DNA from: Bradyrhizobium sp. sGM-13
GTDB taxonomy: Bacteria > Pseudomonadota > Alphaproteobacteria > Rhizobiales > Xanthobacteraceae
DNA length: 64,000 nucleotides
Reading direction: 5' to 3'
NCBI RefSeq assembly: GCF_018398875.1
Contig: NZ_JAGWDK010000011.1
Location: 124,001 to 188,000, forward strand
A program made the translations under genes and the position numbers. The notes under the pieces were generated by a model. That model saw only the letters and a list, made by a program, of their open reading frames with translations, had not been told where the DNA came from and did not search any database. Each line of letters starts with the position of its first letter. Within the stretch, counting starts at the first letter, position 1. Below are positions 46,464 through 53,633 of this stretch, piece after piece.

Positions 46464-47318
46464 ATGACCTCATTGCGCTTCGTCGAGCGGCTACGCGACC
46501 TCGTGGACGGCGTCGAGGTCATCCTGTCCGACATCTGGGGCGTGGTGCACAACGGGCTGGAGTCCTTCCCCGAGGCCTGCGAGGCGCTGCACACCTATCG
46601 CCAGCGTGGCGGCACCGTCATCCTGATCACCAACGCGCCGCGGCCCGCCGATTCCGTGCAGCGGCAACTACGCAAGCTCGGCGTCGCCGACGAAACCTAC
46701 GACGCCATTGTCTCTTCCGGCGACCTGACCCGGCACTTCGTCGCCGATCACCCCGGCAAGAAGATATTCTGGGTCGGTCCGGAACGTGATTCTTCGATCC
46801 ACCGCGGGCTCGACGCCGTGCTGGGGCCGCTGGAGCAGGCTGACTACATCATCTGCACCGGCCTGTTCGACGACGAAACCGAATCGGCGGAAGACTATCG
46901 CGCGATGCTGCTGCAGGCGCGCGAGCACAAGCTGCCGCTGATTTGCGCCAATCCCGACATCGTCGTCGAACGCGGCGACCGGTTGATCTATTGCGCGGGC
47001 GCGATCGCCGAGCTTTACCGCGAGCTCGGCGGCGAGGCGATCTTCTACGGCAAGCCGCACCGGCCGATCTACGAGCGCGCGATGGCGCTCGCCGCCGAGC
47101 GCCGCGGCCATTCGGCACCGCTCAACCGCGTGCTAGCCATCGGGGATTCGGTGCGGACCGATCTTACCGGCGCGCACGGCTTCGGAATCGATTGTCTTTT
47201 CCTTACCCGTGGCATCCATTCGGAAGAATTCGAGGGCATCGACCAGCTCGATCCGGCCTCGGTGAAGGAGCTATTCGGACATCCACCCCGCGCGCTGATG
47301 CGGGAGCTGCGGTGGTAG
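46464..47318 (+). CDS. HAD-superfamily hydrolase, TIGR01459 type
   Basis: The 284-aa phosphatase-like protein has a motif I variant SDIWGVVHNG, in which the second Asp is replaced by Trp (Asp23, Trp25), motif II ITNAPRP, and motif III/IV IGDSVRTDLTGA. The FYGKPHRPIYERA region fits the NagD-like cap family. TIGR01459 members occur in alphaproteobacteria and have no confirmed substrate. It follows the TipF-like gene after 15 bases and may be co-transcribed. Confidence 0.87.
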   Translation: MTSLRFVERLRDLVDGVEVILSDIWGVVHNGLESFPEACEALHTYRQRGGTVILITNAPRPADSVQRQLRKLGVADETYDAIVSSGDLTRHFVADHPGKKIFWVGPERDSSIHRGLDAVLGPLEQADYIICTGLFDDETESAEDYRAMLLQAREHKLPLICANPDIVVERGDRLIYCAGAIAELYRELGGEAIFYGKPHRPIYERAMALAAERRGHSAPLNRVLAIGDSVRTDLTGAHGFGIDCLFLTRGIHSEEFEGIDQLDPASVKELFGHPPRALMRELRW

Positions 47319-47485
47319 GTGCATCGCTGCACCGGGCTCAAAATTGCGAAAACGACCCCATGCAAAGTAGGAGTGGGCCTTACATCATCCGAAAACGCAA
47401 GACCTGGTAGGGTTCATGAGAGCGCAGCATGCCCGGGATTGGGCCGGGCATCACGAGAATTGGAGCGAGCTGGAGACCAGGCGCC

Positions 47486-47881
47486 TTACGCCGTCGCCAT
47501 GTCCGGGAAGACCGCCTCGATCTTGGTCTTAAGCGTCGCCGCGTTGAACGGCTTGACGATGTAGTTGTTCACGCCGGCCTTCTTGGCGGCAATCACGTTC
47601 TCGGTCTTGGATTCCGCCGTGATCATGATGAAGGGGGTGGTGGCGAGATTAGGGTCGGCGCGGACTTCCTTGAGCAGGTCGTAGCCGGTCATCGGCTCCA
47701 TGTTCCAGTCCGAGATCACCAGCCCATACTTTTTGCTGCGCATCTTGTTCAGTGCGGCCGAGCCGTCGCTGGCGTCGTCGATGTTATCGAAGCCGAGCTG
47801 CTTCAAAAGATTTCGGATGATGCGGATCATGGTGCTGTAGTCATCAACCACCAGAACCGGCATGGACAAATCAACCGCCAT
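47486..47881 (-). CDS. CheY-like single-domain response regulator
   Basis: The 131-aa stand-alone receiver has Asp13-Asp14, phospho-acceptor Asp58 (VISDWNMEPMTG), the conserved Thr in ITAES and Lys110 (YIVKPF). It resembles CheY more than DivK. Without an output domain it acts by protein contact, for example on the flagellar switch. The start at 47881 follows GGGGGGAAAG and excludes a long upstream extension. No chemotaxis genes adjoin it, though a TipF-like gene is near. Confidence 0.92.
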   Translation of the reverse strand: MAVDLSMPVLVVDDYSTMIRIIRNLLKQLGFDNIDDASDGSAALNKMRSKKYGLVISDWNMEPMTGYDLLKEVRADPNLATTPFIMITAESKTENVIAAKKAGVNNYIVKPFNAATLKTKIEAVFPDMATA

Positions 47882-48157
47882 CTTTCCCCCCACTCGACGC
47901 TTTACGCCACAAAAAATCGACAGGCCTGCGGGACCCGCAGTCCTCCCCCCACCTGTAGCATCAGCCGTTAAACAGCCCGTTAAAGACGAGCGGGTGTTTG
48001 TCATCGTTAAGGTGTGGGGTAGGGTGGGCTTGAAAAAATCGCAAAAGCGCCCGTCTCGCAACGGTTTCTGGCATTGTTAATAGCGGAGCCGTTAGGGATG
48101 GTTAAGCCCCATTAAGGGGCAAATCGCCCCGATCAATTGTCCGGGGAGGACATCCAG
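47882..48157. promoter_or_regulatory. Upstream region of the CheY-like gene with repeated GTTAA words
   Basis: This 276-bp stretch has no gene. GTTAA words occur repeatedly (for example GTTAAACAGCCCGTTAAAG and GGTTAAGCCCCATTAAGG), with spacings of eight and six rather than the seven of the canonical CtrA box. They may be degenerate sites or chance. No promoter is named. Confidence 0.35.
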
Positions 48158-48217
48158 ATGCTGCAACTGGTAAGGTCAGCGGGCGCTGCCGCTGCCAATA
48201 AACCTCGAGTAAAATGA
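48158..48217 (+). other. Short leader-like ORF with good ribosome-binding site, 19 codons
   Basis: ATG 48158 follows a strong GGGGAGGA (48143-48150). The 19-residue frame (MLQLVRSAGAAAANKPRVK) ends at TGA 48215-48217, overlapping the ATG at 48214 of the integrase remnant. It could be a short translated leader, or the shifted first codons of the degraded integrase gene. Confidence 0.35.
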
Positions 48218-48360
48218 ACGATCTCTTCTATGGCGAGAAGAAAAACAAGTCATGGAAAGCGGCCGACAAACTGATCAAGCGCTACGTGTTGCCAAGCTGG
48301 GGCAAGCTGCGGGCGGCCGACATATCGCGTGGTGATGCCAATAAACTGCCGTTGTTCTGG
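48214..48360 (+). pseudogene. N-terminal remnant of a tyrosine-type site-specific integrase
   Basis: About 46 codons from ATG 48214 read like the SAM-like core-binding domain of phage integrases: KSWKAADKLIKRYVLPSWGK followed by LRAADISRGD. The sequence then leaves the family pattern, and the catalytic Arg-His-Arg-Tyr domain is absent; an open frame continues only to 48435. It marks an old integration event at the left edge of the accessory block. No tRNA or clear attachment repeat is visible beside it. Confidence 0.65.
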
Positions 48361-48465
48361 AAGGCATTCGATAAGCAGCGGCGTGACCCTCGCGATGGAT
48401 GCGCTCTGGAACCATTTCAGAGAGTATCCGGTTAGTCTGCTGGGGCCGATGGAGGAACCATCGCC

Positions 48466-48627
48466 ATGAGGATCAGATATCTTGCTGCACTTGCGATACT
48501 TGCCGCTGGTGCTGGACTGGCGGTCCATTCTCTGCCGCCCGAGAAGCAGTCCCCGCCTGCCCTTGCCCAATTGGCGAGCCTGCTAGCTGAATCCGCGGGT
48601 CCGTTTTTGCATCGGTCCGGTGGCTAA
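48466..48627 (+). CDS. Small exported hypothetical protein, 53 aa
   Basis: A short gene with GGAGGA ten bases upstream of ATG 48466. The 53-aa product starts MRIRYLAALAILAAGAGLAV, a signal peptide or membrane anchor, and continues into a short Pro/Leu/Ala-rich tail. It is close to the Cys-rich exported protein gene downstream (90 bp) and may be co-transcribed. No known family is recognised. Confidence 0.5.
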   Translation: MRIRYLAALAILAAGAGLAVHSLPPEKQSPPALAQLASLLAESAGPFLHRSGG

Positions 48628-48717
48628 CACCCGCCGCAGTCCCCGTCTCTTTGTCCGCAACCATTCGGGGACCGACCTCAACCGCACAAGCCGCGCAAGC
48701 GGAGCGGCAGGACGGCA

Positions 48718-49365
48718 ATGCGATATCTCAAACTGGCAACCCTAGTTTTGGCAAATGCGCTGATAGGATCGCCCTCGTTCGCGCAAACCTGTTGCCCCGC
48801 CGGCTGCGCGCCAGAGGCCGATCGGTGCGTGACCACGGGTCCGCCGTGGACCAGATGCATTCCGATCGCCTGCGACGAGGGTACAAGAAGGCCGATCTCG
48901 GGGGCCTCTGACCCTGCGCGCGAGCCCCGAAAGCGCGCGGTGCTTGCTCGCTCGCTGCGCCCAGCGCGTACTTACGTGGCCCCACGTCAGATCCCCCGGC
49001 ATTGCCCATTGATAAATCCAACCAAAGCACAAGTCGCCGAGGCGACCAATCAATGCGTGAACGCGTTGACGCGAAGTGCGCAATTGCGGAATTGCGTTTT
49101 CGAGGACGATGCTGGCAGGGCCGAAGACAAAAGAACTGGCCTGAGCTGCCCTGATCGTCAAGCTGCGCTTGCTAAGCAGTGTCTAAGACGCTGCGCCAAT
49201 TACGCATCCAATTCGACCCATTTGGTGTGCAGCGGCAGCTATCCGAACACGGTCTGGCGTATCTCCTTTGGAGATATTTTGGCCGAGCCTGGCAATTCCG
49301 CGCGTGTAGACCTCTGCGGGCCTCGACTAAGAAGCATGTCCGCGAAAAAGCCGCCAACGGGTTGA
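48718..49365 (+). CDS. Cysteine-rich exported hypothetical protein
   Basis: The 215-aa protein has a signal peptide (MRYLKLATLVLANALIGS, cleavage near SFAQ) and a mature part with about a dozen Cys, the first group being TCCPAGCAPEADRC. Spread Cys suggests several disulphides and a periplasmic or secreted role. AGGA lies about six bases upstream. I do not recognise the family. The 5' portion has host-like codon use, while the 3' end is less GC-biased, and the C-terminus may be degraded or foreign. Confidence 0.5.
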   Translation: MRYLKLATLVLANALIGSPSFAQTCCPAGCAPEADRCVTTGPPWTRCIPIACDEGTRRPISGASDPAREPRKRAVLARSLRPARTYVAPRQIPRHCPLINPTKAQVAEATNQCVNALTRSAQLRNCVFEDDAGRAEDKRTGLSCPDRQAALAKQCLRRCANYASNSTHLVCSGSYPNTVWRISFGDILAEPGNSARVDLCGPRLRSMSAKKPPTG

Positions 49366-49433
49366 GAGTGATGTCCGGCTCACAAGAAGCCGTCTTGCCA
49401 AGCATCGTCGGGCGACGTCGATACTCTTTTTAA

Positions 49434-49451
49434 AGAGGGCTTCGGCCCTCT
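49434..49451. terminator. Hairpin AGAGGGC-TTCG-GCCCTCT
   Basis: A seven-base perfect stem with the stable tetraloop TTCG lies in the left direct repeat. Read on the minus strand, a short AT run follows, so it may terminate transcription from the right; on the plus strand there is no T-run. A diverged version occurs in the right repeat at about 51234-51254. Confidence 0.45.
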
Positions 49452-49521
49452 CTTCGGTTCCTGCTAACGTTTGGTCCAAAGCACGTTGCGATAGATCGGC
49501 CCGATGTCCGCGGACCTTTCA

Positions 49522-49565
49522 TCAGCGGTACTTGCCGTTCGGGCTGCCGTCACCGCCGCCATTGG
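49522..49565 (-). pseudogene. C-terminal fragment of the Tat-exported Gly-rich protein gene
   Basis: On the minus strand the left repeat encodes NGGGDGSPNGKYR and a stop, matching the end of the intact 77-aa protein (NGGGDGSPNGKDDKYR). The rest of the gene is missing upstream of 49565. It is a partial duplicate created by the repeat. Confidence 0.7.
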
Positions 49566-49639
49566 AAGGTCTCACCTTCGACTAGATCGAGGAAACGCGT
49601 GGTGGCCGGGCCGAGGCCGCCCGATCGGATGCTGACAAC

Positions 49640-51133
49640 GTGATCGTTCCCGAGGGCTTCTCCCTCCAACTGTTCGCAACAGGTCTGACGTTCCCGACTG
49701 CGATAGCGTTTTCAGATGACCAGGTGTGGGTGAGCGAGTCGGGAGCCGTGCCCGGCACCGTGCCGCAGATCGTGCAGGTCGGCCCCCGCGGCGAGGCGAT
49801 CATAGCGCTCTCGAGTGAGCAACTGCCGGAAGGCATTCTGGCCGGACCAATTACCGACGTCACCTTCCACGACGGCGAGGTCTGGCTCACGCACCGGCAG
49901 ATCGGCGCCAACGGTTGGCTGGTGGGCGCCATCTCCAAATTCGATCCCGCCAATCCGGTCGACAGCTTCACGACTGTGCTGACCAACCTGCCTTCCACCG
50001 GCGATCACTATGCCGAGGAGATCGCGTTCGATACATCAGGTCGCGCGTATTTCTCACAGGGGACCGCCACCAACTCGAGCGTTGTCGGGCCAGACAACGA
50101 GCTCGTGACTGGATGGCTGACGCAATTTCCGGATTTTCACGACTTCGCCGCTCACGATGTCGTGCTGAACGGGACGGAATTTCATGCCCCGCTTTCCGTG
50201 CCCGGACTCAACCCCGAAAATCAGGTGACGGCCCCGTTCATGCCGTTTGGCTCAGGCCCGATTGCGCCAGGCACCGTCATCCCAGCTGCTACCCCGCAAA
50301 CACCGCAGGAAGGTATGATTGCGGGTAACGGAGCCGTGTACTCGTTTGATCCCGCGGCGGATGACCCCGCCTCCACCCTGACGCTCGAGGGGTGGGGGAT
50401 CCGCAACTCTTTCGGCATAGGTTTTGACCCGTTCAACCCTGACCTGCTGTTTGCCACCAATAATGGTGCCGACATCCGGTCGGCTCCACTGGATGGACTC
50501 CGGGTCGTGGAGTCACGCCCGATCGCGAATGATTACGATGATCTGTTCACCATCAATGTTGGCGGCGACCCGGAATTTTTCGGATGGCCGGATTTCTTCC
50601 ATGATCCCGACACCGGCGCCGTGCTGCCGGTCACTGATCCGCTGTTTGCCCAGGGCGAGCTGCCGATCAACCCGCCTGGTTTCGTGTTGGACCAGGATTT
50701 CCGGAACGGCTTAGAGGTCGAGCCTGCCCTTGCTCAATTCGAACTCCATTCATCCGCCAACAAGTTCGACTTCTCGACAAGCGACAATTTCAAATTCGGT
50801 GAAGTCGGAGACCTGTTTGTCGCAGAAACCGGTTCGTTCGTCCCTGTGACGGGGGCACAGGAGTTCGTCGGCTACAGCGTGGTCCAAGTCGATCGGGACA
50901 CCGGCGCGGTGAGCGACTTTATCGTTCACACCAGCAATACGGCCGACGATATCTTTGATCCCGAGGGGTTCAACAAACCGATCGACGTCAAATTCCAGGA
51001 GGACACGATGTTCATCGTGGACTTCGGGGTGTTCGAGCCGGGTCTCGAGCTGGCAGAACCCGGAACTGGAAAGGTCTGGATCCTCGCTCCCGGTCAGCAC
51101 GATGGACATCATGATGGACTGCTATTGGCGTGA
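49640..51133 (+). CDS. Beta-propeller (sorbosone/glucose dehydrogenase-like) protein, probably 5'-truncated
   Basis: The 497-aa reading begins at GTG 49640 and shows a repeated propeller pattern of the PQQ sugar dehydrogenase/ScyD type: VPEGFSLQLFATGLTFPTAI at the first blade, then SFGIGFDPFNPDLLFATNNG and NKPIDVKFQEDTMFIVDFG. The frame upstream is closed by TAG at 49583, leaving no room for the signal peptide such proteins normally have, and no good ribosome-binding site is seen. It is therefore likely truncated by the rearrangement that placed it between two direct repeats. Substrate and cofactor are unknown. Confidence 0.6.
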   Translation: MIVPEGFSLQLFATGLTFPTAIAFSDDQVWVSESGAVPGTVPQIVQVGPRGEAIIALSSEQLPEGILAGPITDVTFHDGEVWLTHRQIGANGWLVGAISKFDPANPVDSFTTVLTNLPSTGDHYAEEIAFDTSGRAYFSQGTATNSSVVGPDNELVTGWLTQFPDFHDFAAHDVVLNGTEFHAPLSVPGLNPENQVTAPFMPFGSGPIAPGTVIPAATPQTPQEGMIAGNGAVYSFDPAADDPASTLTLEGWGIRNSFGIGFDPFNPDLLFATNNGADIRSAPLDGLRVVESRPIANDYDDLFTINVGGDPEFFGWPDFFHDPDTGAVLPVTDPLFAQGELPINPPGFVLDQDFRNGLEVEPALAQFELHSSANKFDFSTSDNFKFGEVGDLFVAETGSFVPVTGAQEFVGYSVVQVDRDTGAVSDFIVHTSNTADDIFDPEGFNKPIDVKFQEDTMFIVDFGVFEPGLELAEPGTGKVWILAPGQHDGHHDGLLLA

Positions 51134-51195
51134 AGTGCCTGGGTTTCCGGCTGCCGTCACTTCTGCGGCGTGACGGCGCAGCGCTGGTTGCAAAG

Positions 51196-51226
51196 AACTA
51201 AGGCCGCCAAAGAGGCGGCCTTAGTT
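51196..51226. terminator. Strong hairpin after the beta-propeller gene
   Basis: AACTAAGGCCGCC (51196-51208) and GGCGGCCTTAGTT (51214-51226) form a perfect 13-bp stem with an AAAGA loop. It lies just left of the right direct repeat. The stem ends in AT pairs but no long T-run follows, so termination is likely but not certain; it may serve both strands. Confidence 0.7.
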
Positions 51227-51229
51227 GCT

Positions 51230-51374
51230 CTTAAAGAGGGATTCGGGCCTCTCTTCGGTTTCTGCTAACGTTTGGTCCAAAGCACGTTGCGATACATCGG
51301 CCCGATGTCCGCGGACCTTTCATCAACGGTACTTGTCGTCCTTGCCGTTCGGGCTGCCGTCGCCGCCGCCATTG
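51230..51374. repeat. Direct repeat DR2 (right copy)
   Basis: Right copy of the 135-bp repeat at 49431-49565, longer by nine bases (TGTCGTCCT-type insertion near 51335). It includes the end of the intact 77-aa gene on the minus strand. The two copies bracket about 1.66 kb that contains the truncated beta-propeller gene. Confidence 0.85.
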
Positions 51375-51556
51375 CCTTTTCCATTATTACCCCTCGGCCC
51401 GCCATGGCCACCTGCCCCAGAATGAGCAATCGCATCAGAGGTTAGAGAGGTTGATAGCAGCAGCGTTATTGCTGGGGGCGTTACAGCCGCAAACCGACCA
51501 GCCGCCTTTAGGAAATTACGGCGGTCTTCGATCTCTCGTACCTCACGATCGTTCAT
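51323..51556 (-). CDS. Small Tat-exported Gly-rich protein, 77 aa
   Basis: The 77-aa protein starts MNDREVREIEDRRNFLKAAG, a clear twin-arginine motif (RRNFLK), followed by a hydrophobic core (PPAITLLLSTSLTSDAIA). The mature end of about 30 residues is Gly/His/Asn-rich (SGAGGHGGPRGNNGKGNG) and ends KYR. Export by Tat suggests folding or cofactor binding in the cytoplasm, but the mature peptide is very short. GGAGG lies before the ATG. A partial duplicate of its end lies at 49522-49565. Confidence 0.7.
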   Translation of the reverse strand: MNDREVREIEDRRNFLKAAGRFAAVTPPAITLLLSTSLTSDAIAHSGAGGHGGPRGNNGKGNGGGDGSPNGKDDKYR

Positions 51557-51711
51557 GGTGATTGCCTCCGACAGGTTATGGATGCAATATTATACCGCAT
51601 TTAGTTTTCAGAATTAACTATATTAAATCGTTCAATCGCCTTTAATTGCACCGAGCGGTTGGAACTTCGCGATTATCCTAATGACATTCGCATCGCGCCT
51701 AGGGAAAACGC
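51557..51711. promoter_or_regulatory. AT-rich divergent promoter region
   Basis: This 155-bp stretch is visibly AT-rich compared with the window (for example TTTTCAGAATTAACTATATT) and separates the divergent Tat-exported gene and zinc-ribbon gene. It is likely to carry both promoters, but no specific boxes are named. Confidence 0.5.
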
Positions 51712-51924
51712 ATGCCTGAAGCGCGATATCGGTCGATTTGCCCGACTTGCCAACGCTCGATGACGCTTGAACTTCAACCGAGTAGCATGTCTCCACGCAC
51801 GTTCCAGTGTCTGGAATGCGAGTGGCCCGCCCCGCTGAAGTCGCGGGTTTTTGCGGGCATCATCAAGGGTTGCAGCCGCTTGAATAAAACAAAAGAACGG
51901 CCCCAGCCGGGGGGCGATGGCTAA
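51712..51924 (+). CDS. Small zinc-ribbon-like protein, 70 aa
   Basis: The 70-aa protein contains two CxxC pairs, ICPTCQRS near residue 9 and FQCLECEW near 31, the pattern of a zinc ribbon. The C-terminus is basic. An AGGGAAAA run precedes ATG 51712. Similar microproteins are scattered in Bradyrhizobium-type genomes with no known role. It could bind nucleic acid or protein; function is not inferred. Confidence 0.65.
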   Translation: MPEARYRSICPTCQRSMTLELQPSSMSPRTFQCLECEWPAPLKSRVFAGIIKGCSRLNKTKERPQPGGDG

Positions 51925-52130
51925 GGGCCGCTCAGGTCGGTGAATGCCTCGGCGGCGATGCACTCGACTATCCAAAAGTTCTATCGCGGCAAAGGTTCCG
52001 GCCCCAGCTTGCCTCCAGTTCCCGGCTCCACACAATCTGAACAAATATTCAGAATCGAGGAACGAAAATCCTGGCCATGGCTTAAGTCGGCGACCCGACA
52101 TTGGTGTCGGTTTTCCCTGGGAGAGATGTT
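51925..52130. other. Intergenic region, no gene seen
   Basis: The 206-bp stretch has overlapping short frames but no convincing gene. It probably holds the promoter of the NepR-like gene; no boxes are named. Confidence 0.35.
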
Positions 52131-52316
52131 ATGCGAAAGCCTGTTGACATCGACTCCTCCCATAGTCGCGCGATCACCAAAAAGATCGGTGAAGGACTAC
52201 GCGCGTCATTCAAAGAAGATCGAGAGTTACCGGTGAGCTTCCGAAAGCAGATCGAACGGCACCGTCAATTAGAAAGCGAGGCGCAGCCTGGGTCGTCGCC
52301 TAATGACAAACCCTAA
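52131..52316 (+). CDS. Small hypothetical protein, possibly NepR-like
   Basis: The 61-aa protein from ATG 52131 (ribosome-binding site GGGAGAGA) reads HSRAITKKIGEGLRASF followed by ELPVSFRKQIERHRQLE. The spacing resembles the NepR anti-sigma pattern (IG..LR..Y, then EP-P..F..LL..L), although the match is loose. NepR proteins hold the general-stress sigma factor EcfG in alphaproteobacteria. No phyR or ecfG lies beside it, so the assignment is tentative. Confidence 0.45.
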   Translation: MRKPVDIDSSHSRAITKKIGEGLRASFKEDRELPVSFRKQIERHRQLESEAQPGSSPNDKP

Positions 52317-52485
52317 TTGCCCAATCTGTCACAGCATCGGGTGGGTGTGCGAAAATCAGCCTGACAAAAGCTTGGGATCAAGAAATCGGCTGCATCTACG
52401 GTGTGGTATGCCTTGAAAATGCAATTCCGATGACGAGCCGGATATCAGTCAGGTGATGGAAGAGAAACCGCCGACGCGTCACTAA
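52303..52485 (+). pseudogene. Decayed small Cys-rich (zinc-binding type) gene
   Basis: From ATG 52303 the frame gives NCPICHSIGWVCENQPDKS, which I recognise as the start of a small Bradyrhizobium Cys-rich family. It then leaves the family pattern, while the +1 frame gives WDQEIGC, and the original frame resumes at CGMP. A TGA at 52414-52416 interrupts it, after which KCNSDDEPDISQVMEEKP continues to TAA 52483-52485. Two compensating frameshifts, loss of a Cys codon and a stop mark a pseudogene. The family consensus is from memory. Confidence 0.6.
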
Positions 52486-52512
52486 GGACAATCCGCGTAA
52501 GAATTGATGAAC

Positions 52513-52538
52513 GGGCGGCATAGCGCCGCCCATTTTTG
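52513..52538 (+). terminator. Rho-independent terminator before ribF
   Basis: Stem GGGCGGC (52513-52519) and GCCGCCC (52525-52531) with an ATAGC loop is followed by ATTTTTGTT. It ends transcription from the left before the ribF operon. Confidence 0.85.
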
Positions 52539-52649
52539 TTGGAATTGACGCCGGATTGCATCCGTTTTGATCCGCCCCGCCCGGCTTGACTTCGATGGCG
52601 GCGCCGCGTCACCGTCCGGCCGCCTTCACCGAGACCAAGAATCCCTGAA

Positions 52650-53633
52650 ATGACAACTGCTTTTACCGTTATCCGAGACGCCACCCCTGCCGCCGACATC
52701 CCCCGCGGGGCGGTGGTCGCGATGGGCAATTTCGACGGCGTCCATCTGGGCCACCGGGCCGTGATCGACGCGGCCTTGCGGATGGGCCGCGCCCACGGCA
52801 AGCCGGCCTTTGCCGTCACTTTCGAGCCGCATCCGCGCAGCTTTTTCAGCCCGAACAGCCCCCAGTTCCGGCTCTCCGACGAGACCAACAAGCTGCGGCT
52901 GCTGGCCGGAACGGGGCTTGATGGCGCGGTCGTGATGACCTTCGACAAGACCCGCGCCGGAACCTCGGCGCAAGACTTCATTCACCATGACCTGATCGGG
53001 CGGCTCGGCGTCAGCGGCATTGCCGTGGGCTACGACTTTCATTTCGGCAAGGGCCGGGCCGGCTCGCCGAGCTTGTTGGTCAGCGAGGGGCCGCGGCTCG
53101 GCATCGAGGTCGACGTCCAGGCCCATGTCGATATCGACGAGCGGCCGGTGTCCTCCAGCGCGATCCGCATGGCGCTGGCGGAGGGCCAGATCGACGAAGC
53201 CACCGCCATGCTGGGCGGGCCGTGGTTCGTCAGCGGCGCGGTGATCCATGGCGAGAAGCGCGGCCGGGACCTCGGGTACCCCACCGCCAACATCCGCCTC
53301 GACAAGAATTGCAGCCTCAAGCACGGCATCTATGCGGTGCGGGTCGGCCGCGGGCAAGGAAAGGATCATGAGCGCTTCGACGCCGTCGCGAGCTTCGGCC
53401 GCCGCCCGACTTTCGACAACGGCGCACCGCTGTTGGAGGTGTTCCTGTTCGATTTCAAGGGCGACCTCTATGGGGCGGTGCTCGATGTCGCCTTCATCGG
53501 CTTCATCCGCGACGAACTTAAATTCGACTCGATCGACGCGTTGATCCGGCAGATGAACGATGACAGCGCGCGCGCCCGCGCGCGGCTGGCCGCAGCCCCC
53601 GATGCGTTTCCGAAGCTCGGAGTGATCGATTGA
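52650..53633 (+). CDS. ribF: Bifunctional riboflavin kinase/FAD synthetase
   Basis: The 327-aa protein makes FMN and FAD. The N-terminal nucleotidyltransferase has GNFDGVHLGH at 26-35, and the C-terminal kinase has GEKRGRDLGYPTANI. Start ATG 52650 and length are typical. It begins a group with an acetyltransferase, ileS and lspA. Unlike ribH, no FMN riboswitch is seen upstream. Confidence 0.95.
   Translation: MTTAFTVIRDATPAADIPRGAVVAMGNFDGVHLGHRAVIDAALRMGRAHGKPAFAVTFEPHPRSFFSPNSPQFRLSDETNKLRLLAGTGLDGAVVMTFDKTRAGTSAQDFIHHDLIGRLGVSGIAVGYDFHFGKGRAGSPSLLVSEGPRLGIEVDVQAHVDIDERPVSSSAIRMALAEGQIDEATAMLGGPWFVSGAVIHGEKRGRDLGYPTANIRLDKNCSLKHGIYAVRVGRGQGKDHERFDAVASFGRRPTFDNGAPLLEVFLFDFKGDLYGAVLDVAFIGFIRDELKFDSIDALIRQMNDDSARARARLAAAPDAFPKLGVID

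What the first reader, a model, noticed from the sequence alone, without database searches (positions are those of the whole stretch)
49431..51374. Truncated beta-propeller gene bracketed by ~135-bp direct repeats
Two near-identical direct repeats (49431-49565, 51230-51374) flank about 1.66 kb holding a propeller gene without signal peptide or good ribosome-binding site. The left copy ends in a fragment of the 77-aa gene that is intact beside the right copy. This looks like a duplication-insertion event or a unit able to excise by recombination between repeats; no transposase is present.
Basis: partly seen in the sequence, partly recalled or inferred. Interest (0 to 1): 0.6.

Follow-up and report, generated by a model that had tools for sequence, protein, structure and literature searches.

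The report
Patchwork insertion carrying headless propeller gene
A soil bacterium carries a 4.6-kb patch of gene scraps between two ordinary genes, including a propeller gene that lost its front end; it looks like evolutionary debris rather than a movable unit.

Summary
The repeats and the headless propeller gene are real. The two copies agree at 128 of 134 aligned positions plus one 9-nt gap; 91 nt of the right copy is non-coding. The excisable-unit reading is not supported. The real unit is a 4,563-bp insertion, 47984-52546, between a cheY-like gene and ribF; the uninterrupted junction is present in 19 of 20 relatives examined. The insertion is a mosaic: a tyrosine-recombinase remnant; a small-gene block found elsewhere in relatives; the 3' end of a 77-aa gene; a 59-bp antisense scrap of a 2OG-Fe(II) oxygenase gene (97% identical to relative G099); the propeller gene without its 5' end; the intact 77-aa gene; another accessory block. 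The oxygenase scrap fills the space between left repeat and propeller, as filler DNA at an illegitimate junction would. The missing signal peptide is not damage: no close relative appears to have one, and in 4 of 6 related loci (2 of 4 lineages) type I secretion genes follow the propeller gene; the window has none. I read it as debris of horizontal transfer and end joining, with a recent pseudogene; the host encodes Ku.

The parts
47984..52546 (.). whole insertion between a cheY-like gene and ribF, absent from 19 of 20 relatives examined
   Evidence: flanking homology breaks at 47983 and resumes at 52547-52553, with 5-12 nt between, in 19 of 20 relatives (14 of the 19 junctions printed); neighbours named by Pfam
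48236..48341 (+). remnant of a tyrosine recombinase (part of its central domain), inside the 73-aa ORF 48214-48435
   Evidence: 77% DNA match to G238; 24 of 42 residues identical to a 413-aa open frame in L189 that hits PF00589, PF13356 and PF22022; the 73-aa ORF itself has no Pfam hit
48398..49377 (+). accessory block: 53-aa ORF and 215-aa ORF (48718-49365)
   Evidence: 81-88% DNA identity at other loci of relatives, L058-L065; only L061, L063 and L064 reach the start of the block
49431..49564 (-). left repeat: last codons of a 77-aa gene copy plus 3' noncoding region with a hairpin
   Evidence: hairpin -14.4 kcal/mol, 8 of 200 shuffles as good
49564..49622 (-). 59-bp filler: antisense internal fragment of a 2OG-Fe(II) oxygenase gene
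   Evidence: 97% identity to G099 C21, E 1.3e-21; source ORF hits PF13640 at 5e-14; the frame GLGPATTRFLDLVEGETF is kept
49640..51133 (+). 5'-truncated propeller gene, 497 codons open from an internal GTG
   Evidence: 80-83% aa identity to full-length genes in L050, L052, L054, L166; upstream starts
51196..51226 (.). strong hairpin between the propeller stop codon and the right repeat
   Evidence: -25.6 kcal/mol, z -6.06
51232..51374 (-). right repeat: 3' end of the intact 77-aa gene plus 3' noncoding region
51323..51556 (-). intact 77-aa gene, a multicopy family in this genome
   Evidence: six matches in the own genome
51932..52485 (+). second accessory block with the 71-aa ORF 52101-52316
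   Evidence: 79-82% DNA identity to parts of it at other loci of relatives: L073, L074, L079, L191

Best explanation
The repeats and the headless propeller gene sit inside a 4.56-kb mosaic of gene scraps, inserted in this lineage between a cheY-like gene and ribF. Shown: the insertion's extent, the empty site in relatives, separate homologues for several of its segments, the 5' truncation, and the 59-bp third-gene filler at the junction. Inferred: the pieces came by horizontal transfer and were joined by illegitimate end joining (Ku-type repair), and the repeats arose because a second, truncated copy of the 77-aa gene's 3' end was one of the joined pieces. The propeller gene is probably derived from the cargo gene of a type I secretion operon. 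Here it lacks the ribosome-binding site, start codon and N-terminus of its relatives and has no transporter genes beside it, so it is probably a recent pseudogene.
For: Clean junction in 19 of 20 relatives. Segments of the insertion have homologues at other loci in different genomes. The 59-bp oxygenase scrap fills the gap between the left repeat and the propeller homology. Apart from that scrap (67% GC) the segments have 50-62% GC, against 63.5 and 65.6% for the flanks and 62.7% for the whole window. The propeller relatives have RBS and ATG upstream. PrtD- and HlyD-type genes follow the propeller gene in L050, L051, L052 and L053. Ku genes are present in the host. No terminal direct repeats of 6 nt or more, no tRNA in the window. 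No plus-strand sigma-70-like promoter was found in 49300-51650 (consensus scan only).
Against: The ORF is intact over 497 codons and shows purifying selection against all four relatives (dN/dS 0.097-0.124), so decay is at most recent. Type I genes are not beside the gene in the Microvirga and Methylobacterium stretches, so the cargo role rests on two lineages. End joining is not shown: microhomology at the filler junctions is 1-3 nt by eye and was not tested; LigD was not searched. The noncoding part of the repeat also recurs in three other genomes (G013, G197, G222; 83-86% over 53-66 nt), in G013 with no 77-aa gene within the 8 kb read, so part of the repeat may be a dispersed module rather than a by-product of one event. 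No intermediate genome was found.
Confidence: 0.7

Rival explanations
1. Single-crossover (Campbell-type) integration: a small circle carrying a propeller fragment and the 3' end of a 77-aa gene recombined with the resident 77-aa gene, giving flanking direct repeats; the reverse crossover would excise it.
For: Repeats are in direct orientation, 95.5% identical over 134 aligned positions, with a 33-nt identical core.
Against: No single-repeat version was seen; the surrounding insertion is itself absent from 19 of 20 relatives, so the nested event cannot be dated. Repeat divergence (6 of 134) is not lower than that of the flanks from the nearest relative (0 of 100 and 4 of 103). A third-gene scrap abuts the left repeat.
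Confidence: 0.15
2. An ancestral local pair of 77-aa genes, one of which was broken by insertion of the propeller piece.
For: Members of the 77-aa family often lie 0.6-2.9 kb apart, e.g. in G005, G007, G013, G018, G021 and on G000 C8.
Against: The members of those pairs differ in their identity to the query (for example 74 and 61% in G005), though I did not compare them with each other; here the copies are 95.5% alike including noncoding DNA. Most of this noncoding DNA is not found beside the other family members of this genome (matches extend at most about 23 nt past the stop codon).
Confidence: 0.25
3. Decayed integrative element: the recombinase whose remnant is present brought the whole insertion in, and it later eroded.
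For: Recombinase remnant inside the insertion.
Against: No tRNA in the window, no att-like direct repeat at the ends, and only 42 residues of the recombinase aligned.
Confidence: 0.2

Closest known systems
Type I secretion operons with a PrtD ABC transporter (TIGR01842) and HlyD adaptor (TIGR01843)
   Same: In B. australiense, and in three copies in Bradyrhizobium sp. WSM1743, the propeller gene is directly followed by prtD- and hlyD-type genes
   Different: The window copy has neither gene beside it and has lost its 5' end; nor are they beside the gene in the Microvirga and Methylobacterium stretches
Glucose/sorbosone dehydrogenase-like six-bladed propellers (PF07995, aldose sugar dehydrogenase)
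   Same: The best PDB fold matches include aldose and PQQ-dependent sugar dehydrogenases, with TM-scores to the query of only 0.37-0.40; the M. nodulans homologue is annotated glucose/sorbosone dehydrogenase-like
   Different: No Pfam hit for the window protein; the M. nodulans homologue scores 11.9 bits against a cut-off of 25; the model is low confidence (pLDDT 48.7)
Illegitimate end-joining junctions with filler DNA (known from T-DNA integration in plants; start of the abstract of PMC8395108 seen in the listing)
   Same: A short foreign scrap between two unrelated joined pieces
   Different: Here in a bacterial chromosome; the joining mechanism is inferred

Membership tests
Transposon or IS-borne unit | transposase gene | tested here: not met
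   no Pfam transposase among the nine insertion ORFs scanned; other small ORFs were not scanned
Transposon or IS-borne unit | terminal repeats with target duplication | tested here: not met
   no direct repeat of 6 nt or more between 47950-48030 and 52500-52590; longest inverted match 7 nt
Integrative element with tyrosine recombinase | intact recombinase | tested here: not met
   only 42 residues of a recombinase aligned (source ORF identified)
Integrative element with tyrosine recombinase | att repeats, often at a tRNA gene | tested here: not met
   no tRNA in the window, no terminal direct repeat
Repeat-bounded excisable unit | related genome with a single repeat and no interior | tested here: inconclusive
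   none of the 19 relatives with a readable site carries the surrounding insertion
Repeat-bounded excisable unit | detectable excised junction | not testable with these tools
   needs PCR or reads
Type I secretion cargo of this propeller family | homology to genes linked to PrtD and HlyD | tested here: met
   80-83% aa identity; linkage in 4 of 6 related loci, 2 of 4 lineages
Type I secretion cargo of this propeller family | own transporter genes adjacent | tested here: not met
   none in the window; PrtD-like genes of up to 58% identity elsewhere in the genome
Type I secretion cargo of this propeller family | secretion through the transporter | not testable with these tools
   needs an experiment
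PF07995 glucose/sorbosone dehydrogenase | profile match above cut-off | tested here: not met

The most novel reading that the evidence does not exclude
The filler scrap gave the beheaded propeller gene a new 5' end: the antisense oxygenase fragment supplies a Shine-Dalgarno-like GAGGAA (49589-49594) and a GTG (49599) that opens a 14-codon leader whose TGA (49641-49643) overlaps the GTG at 49640, so the propeller core could be made by translational coupling and remain functional. That would be a gene 5' end born from end-joining filler (sequence).
Probability: 0.07. Interest if true: 0.5.

Novelty: new member of a known kind. Interest (0 to 1): 0.3.

Why it matters
It shows how a bacterial accessory patch can be assembled from unrelated gene scraps, with a traceable 59-bp filler, at a site where two of the other relatives examined carry extra DNA close by. 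It also points to a rare propeller family, found in Bradyrhizobium, Microvirga and Methylobacterium, that in two lineages is linked to type I secretion genes.

Tried and rejected
Excisable unit: no single-repeat version seen. IS or composite transposon: no transposase among the ORFs scanned, no terminal repeats. tRNA-targeted island: no tRNA in the window. Structured RNA: no Rfam hit in 47000-53000. Spacer 49566-49627 as a native Microvirga-like N-terminus: 217 of 300 shuffles reached the score; later explained by the oxygenase match. Terminator labels: the consensus scan found 2 terminator-like sites in 49300-51650 against 2.7 expected by chance, both on the plus strand, and the hairpin of the right repeat is not unusual (42 of 200 shuffles as good), so I call them hairpins. 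PDB sequence search with the propeller: no hit at E 0.1. Structure prediction: low confidence, used only as a hint. Literature: searches seen as listings, passages of PMC3034196 read; nothing in these listings concerned this locus or this propeller family, and no wider claim is made.

Limits of counts. The genome search with DNA scored few candidates per genome (two), so those tallies are lower bounds. The 20 relatives are 20 of the 21 best ribF matches after the window itself; G024 was left out because its contig begins just upstream. In some searches I printed only part of the fetched loci (25: L019, L050-L054, L056-L090 and L141 on; 36: from L050, without L055 and L085-L120); one search printed the right-copy matches only beyond position 235. 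One search printed 14 of the 19 empty junctions. One search compared flanks with 5 of the 20 relatives.

Full report
Check of the observation. Two direct repeats are present at 49431-49564 and 51232-51374. They align with 128 matches, 6 mismatches and one 9-nt gap, with a longest identical run of 33 nt; the left copy finds the right one at E 2.2e-50 in the whole genome. The right copy is the 3' end of an intact 77-aa minus-strand gene (51323-51556) plus 91 nt of noncoding sequence with a hairpin; the left copy keeps only the gene's end. Elsewhere in this genome the left copy finds only pieces of the coding end (two places, 34 and 29 nt). In other genomes the noncoding part recurs in G013, G197 and G222 (83-86% over 53-66 nt), in G013 without a 77-aa gene in the 8 kb read. 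The hairpin is more stable in the left copy (-14.4 against -7.5 kcal/mol; 8 and 42 of 200 shuffles fold as well); a consensus scan did not call either a minus-strand terminator.

Organism. The window lies in G000, 8.3 Mb in 574 contigs. Genomes of the same genus include ones whose contig lengths equal those of Bradyrhizobium australiense WSM 1791 and Bradyrhizobium sp. WSM1743, so the genus is inferred to be Bradyrhizobium.

The real unit. The flanking genes are a response regulator (cheY-like) and riboflavin kinase/FAD synthetase, ribF (Pfam). I fetched the region upstream of ribF from 20 of the 21 best ribF matches. In 19 of 20 the window's homology runs to 47983 and resumes at 52547-52553 with only 5-12 nt between (14 of the 19 junctions printed); the remaining one (G063) matches on the ribF side only. 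The window therefore carries a 4,563-bp insertion, 47984-52546, which these 19 relatives lack. Its ends share no direct repeat of 6 nt or more in the stretches compared, there is no tRNA in the window and no Rfam match in 47000-53000. Two relatives carry extra DNA of about 5.9 and 5.4 kb on the other side of the cheY-like gene (L131 and L134), so the neighbourhood tolerates insertions.

A mosaic. (1) 48236-48341 matches G238 at 77%; it corresponds to 42 residues (24 identical) of a 413-aa open frame with phage-integrase domains PF00589, PF13356 and PF22022. The 73-aa remnant itself has no Pfam hit. (2) 48398-49377, with a 53-aa and a 215-aa ORF, matches other loci of relatives at 81-88% (L058-L065; three of these eight reach the start of the block). 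(3) Left repeat. (4) 49564-49622 matches G099 at 97% over 59 nt; there it lies inside a gene whose product hits 2OG-Fe(II) oxygenase, PF13640, at 5e-14, antisense to the propeller. The window keeps that reading frame. The next best match in any of the 265 genomes is E 3.7e-4. (5) The propeller piece. (6) Right repeat and 77-aa gene. (7) Parts of 51932-52485 match other loci at 79-82%. GC is 50-62% per segment except the oxygenase scrap (67%), against 63.5 and 65.6% for the flanks and 62.7% for the window.

The propeller gene. Relatives are rare: 5 of 265 genomes of the genus including the window's own, two of these remote at 37 and 31% identity; 6 of 397 in the order including the window's own, the other five weak (E 2e-4 to 1e-3); five loci in the GTDB collection, three of them in one genome and one in Microvirga lupini; and five plasmid records, one of them close (Methylobacterium nodulans, 83%) and four at 26-34%. 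The close relatives are legume nodulators (recalled). The four related lineages have a GGAGGAGG ribosome-binding site and an ATG 13 to 107 codons upstream of the conserved core; the window lacks them, and its homology ends at about 49620. None of the relatives' N-termini looks like a signal peptide (by eye). In B. australiense and in all three WSM1743 copies the gene is followed by a PrtD-type transporter and a HlyD-type adaptor; these are not beside it in the Microvirga stretch, the Methylobacterium stretch, the remote G081 homologue or the window. The likely role of the family is type I secretion cargo; the host genome holds PrtD-like transporters of up to 58% identity elsewhere. dN/dS between the window gene and the four relatives is 0.097-0.124, among the relatives 0.078-0.141; the window has 13 private changes at 358 columns invariant in the others, the others 8 of 353, 7 of 352, 8 of 353 and 35 of 380. 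The gene was thus under selection until recently. The fold model is of low confidence (pLDDT 48.7); its best PDB matches include sugar dehydrogenase propellers. NCBIfam gives a sub-threshold ScyE match (27.6 bits, cut-off 80).

Mechanism. The most economical account is that DNA scraps, probably acquired horizontally, were joined without homology and inserted. The host encodes Ku (four matches over the cut-off on three contigs; the same search rang in 1 of 14 control genomes). The oxygenase scrap between two unrelated pieces is the best single sign. The duplicated 77-aa gene end is then one more scrap, or the remnant of a second gene copy, or partly a dispersed module; I cannot tell these apart. 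Repeat divergence (6 of 134) is not less than the divergence of the flanks from the nearest relative (0 of 100 and 4 of 103; four other relatives 1-8 of 100 and 5-7 of 103), so the duplication is not evidently younger than that split, although the numbers are small.

Verdict. Observation confirmed, interpretation partly supported, ordinary in kind but unusually legible. The boldest reading not excluded is that the filler gave the headless gene a new translation start; the leader, its Shine-Dalgarno-like site and the overlapping stop and start codons are in the sequence but may be accidental.

Noticed in passing
48398-48480: Short stretch of which part recurs in 38 other Bradyrhizobium genomes of 257 searched; it contains GGAACC-N17-GTT (48408-48433), which resembles the EcfG general-stress promoter (consensus recalled, not from a call).
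   Followed up: partly
L131, L134: Two relatives carry extra DNA of about 5.9 and 5.4 kb between the HAD-type gene and the cheY-like gene, next to this site.
   Followed up: no
L051, L052, L053: Bradyrhizobium sp. WSM1743 holds the propeller-prtD-hlyD block three times, 95-100% identical over at least 4.8 kb.
   Followed up: partly
51323-51556: The 77-aa protein belongs to a multicopy family (six matches in the own genome) whose members often sit 0.6-2.9 kb apart; no Pfam or NCBIfam match.
   Followed up: partly
L157:842-907: The hairpin-bearing noncoding part of the repeat recurs in G013 at 85%, with no 77-aa gene in the 8 kb read; similar short matches in G197 and G222.
   Followed up: partly
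L054:5956-8196: The Microvirga lupini homologue has an extra C-terminal region with a sub-threshold CHRD-domain match.
   Followed up: no
51196-51226: Very stable hairpin (z -6.06) just after the propeller gene, not part of the repeat.
   Followed up: no
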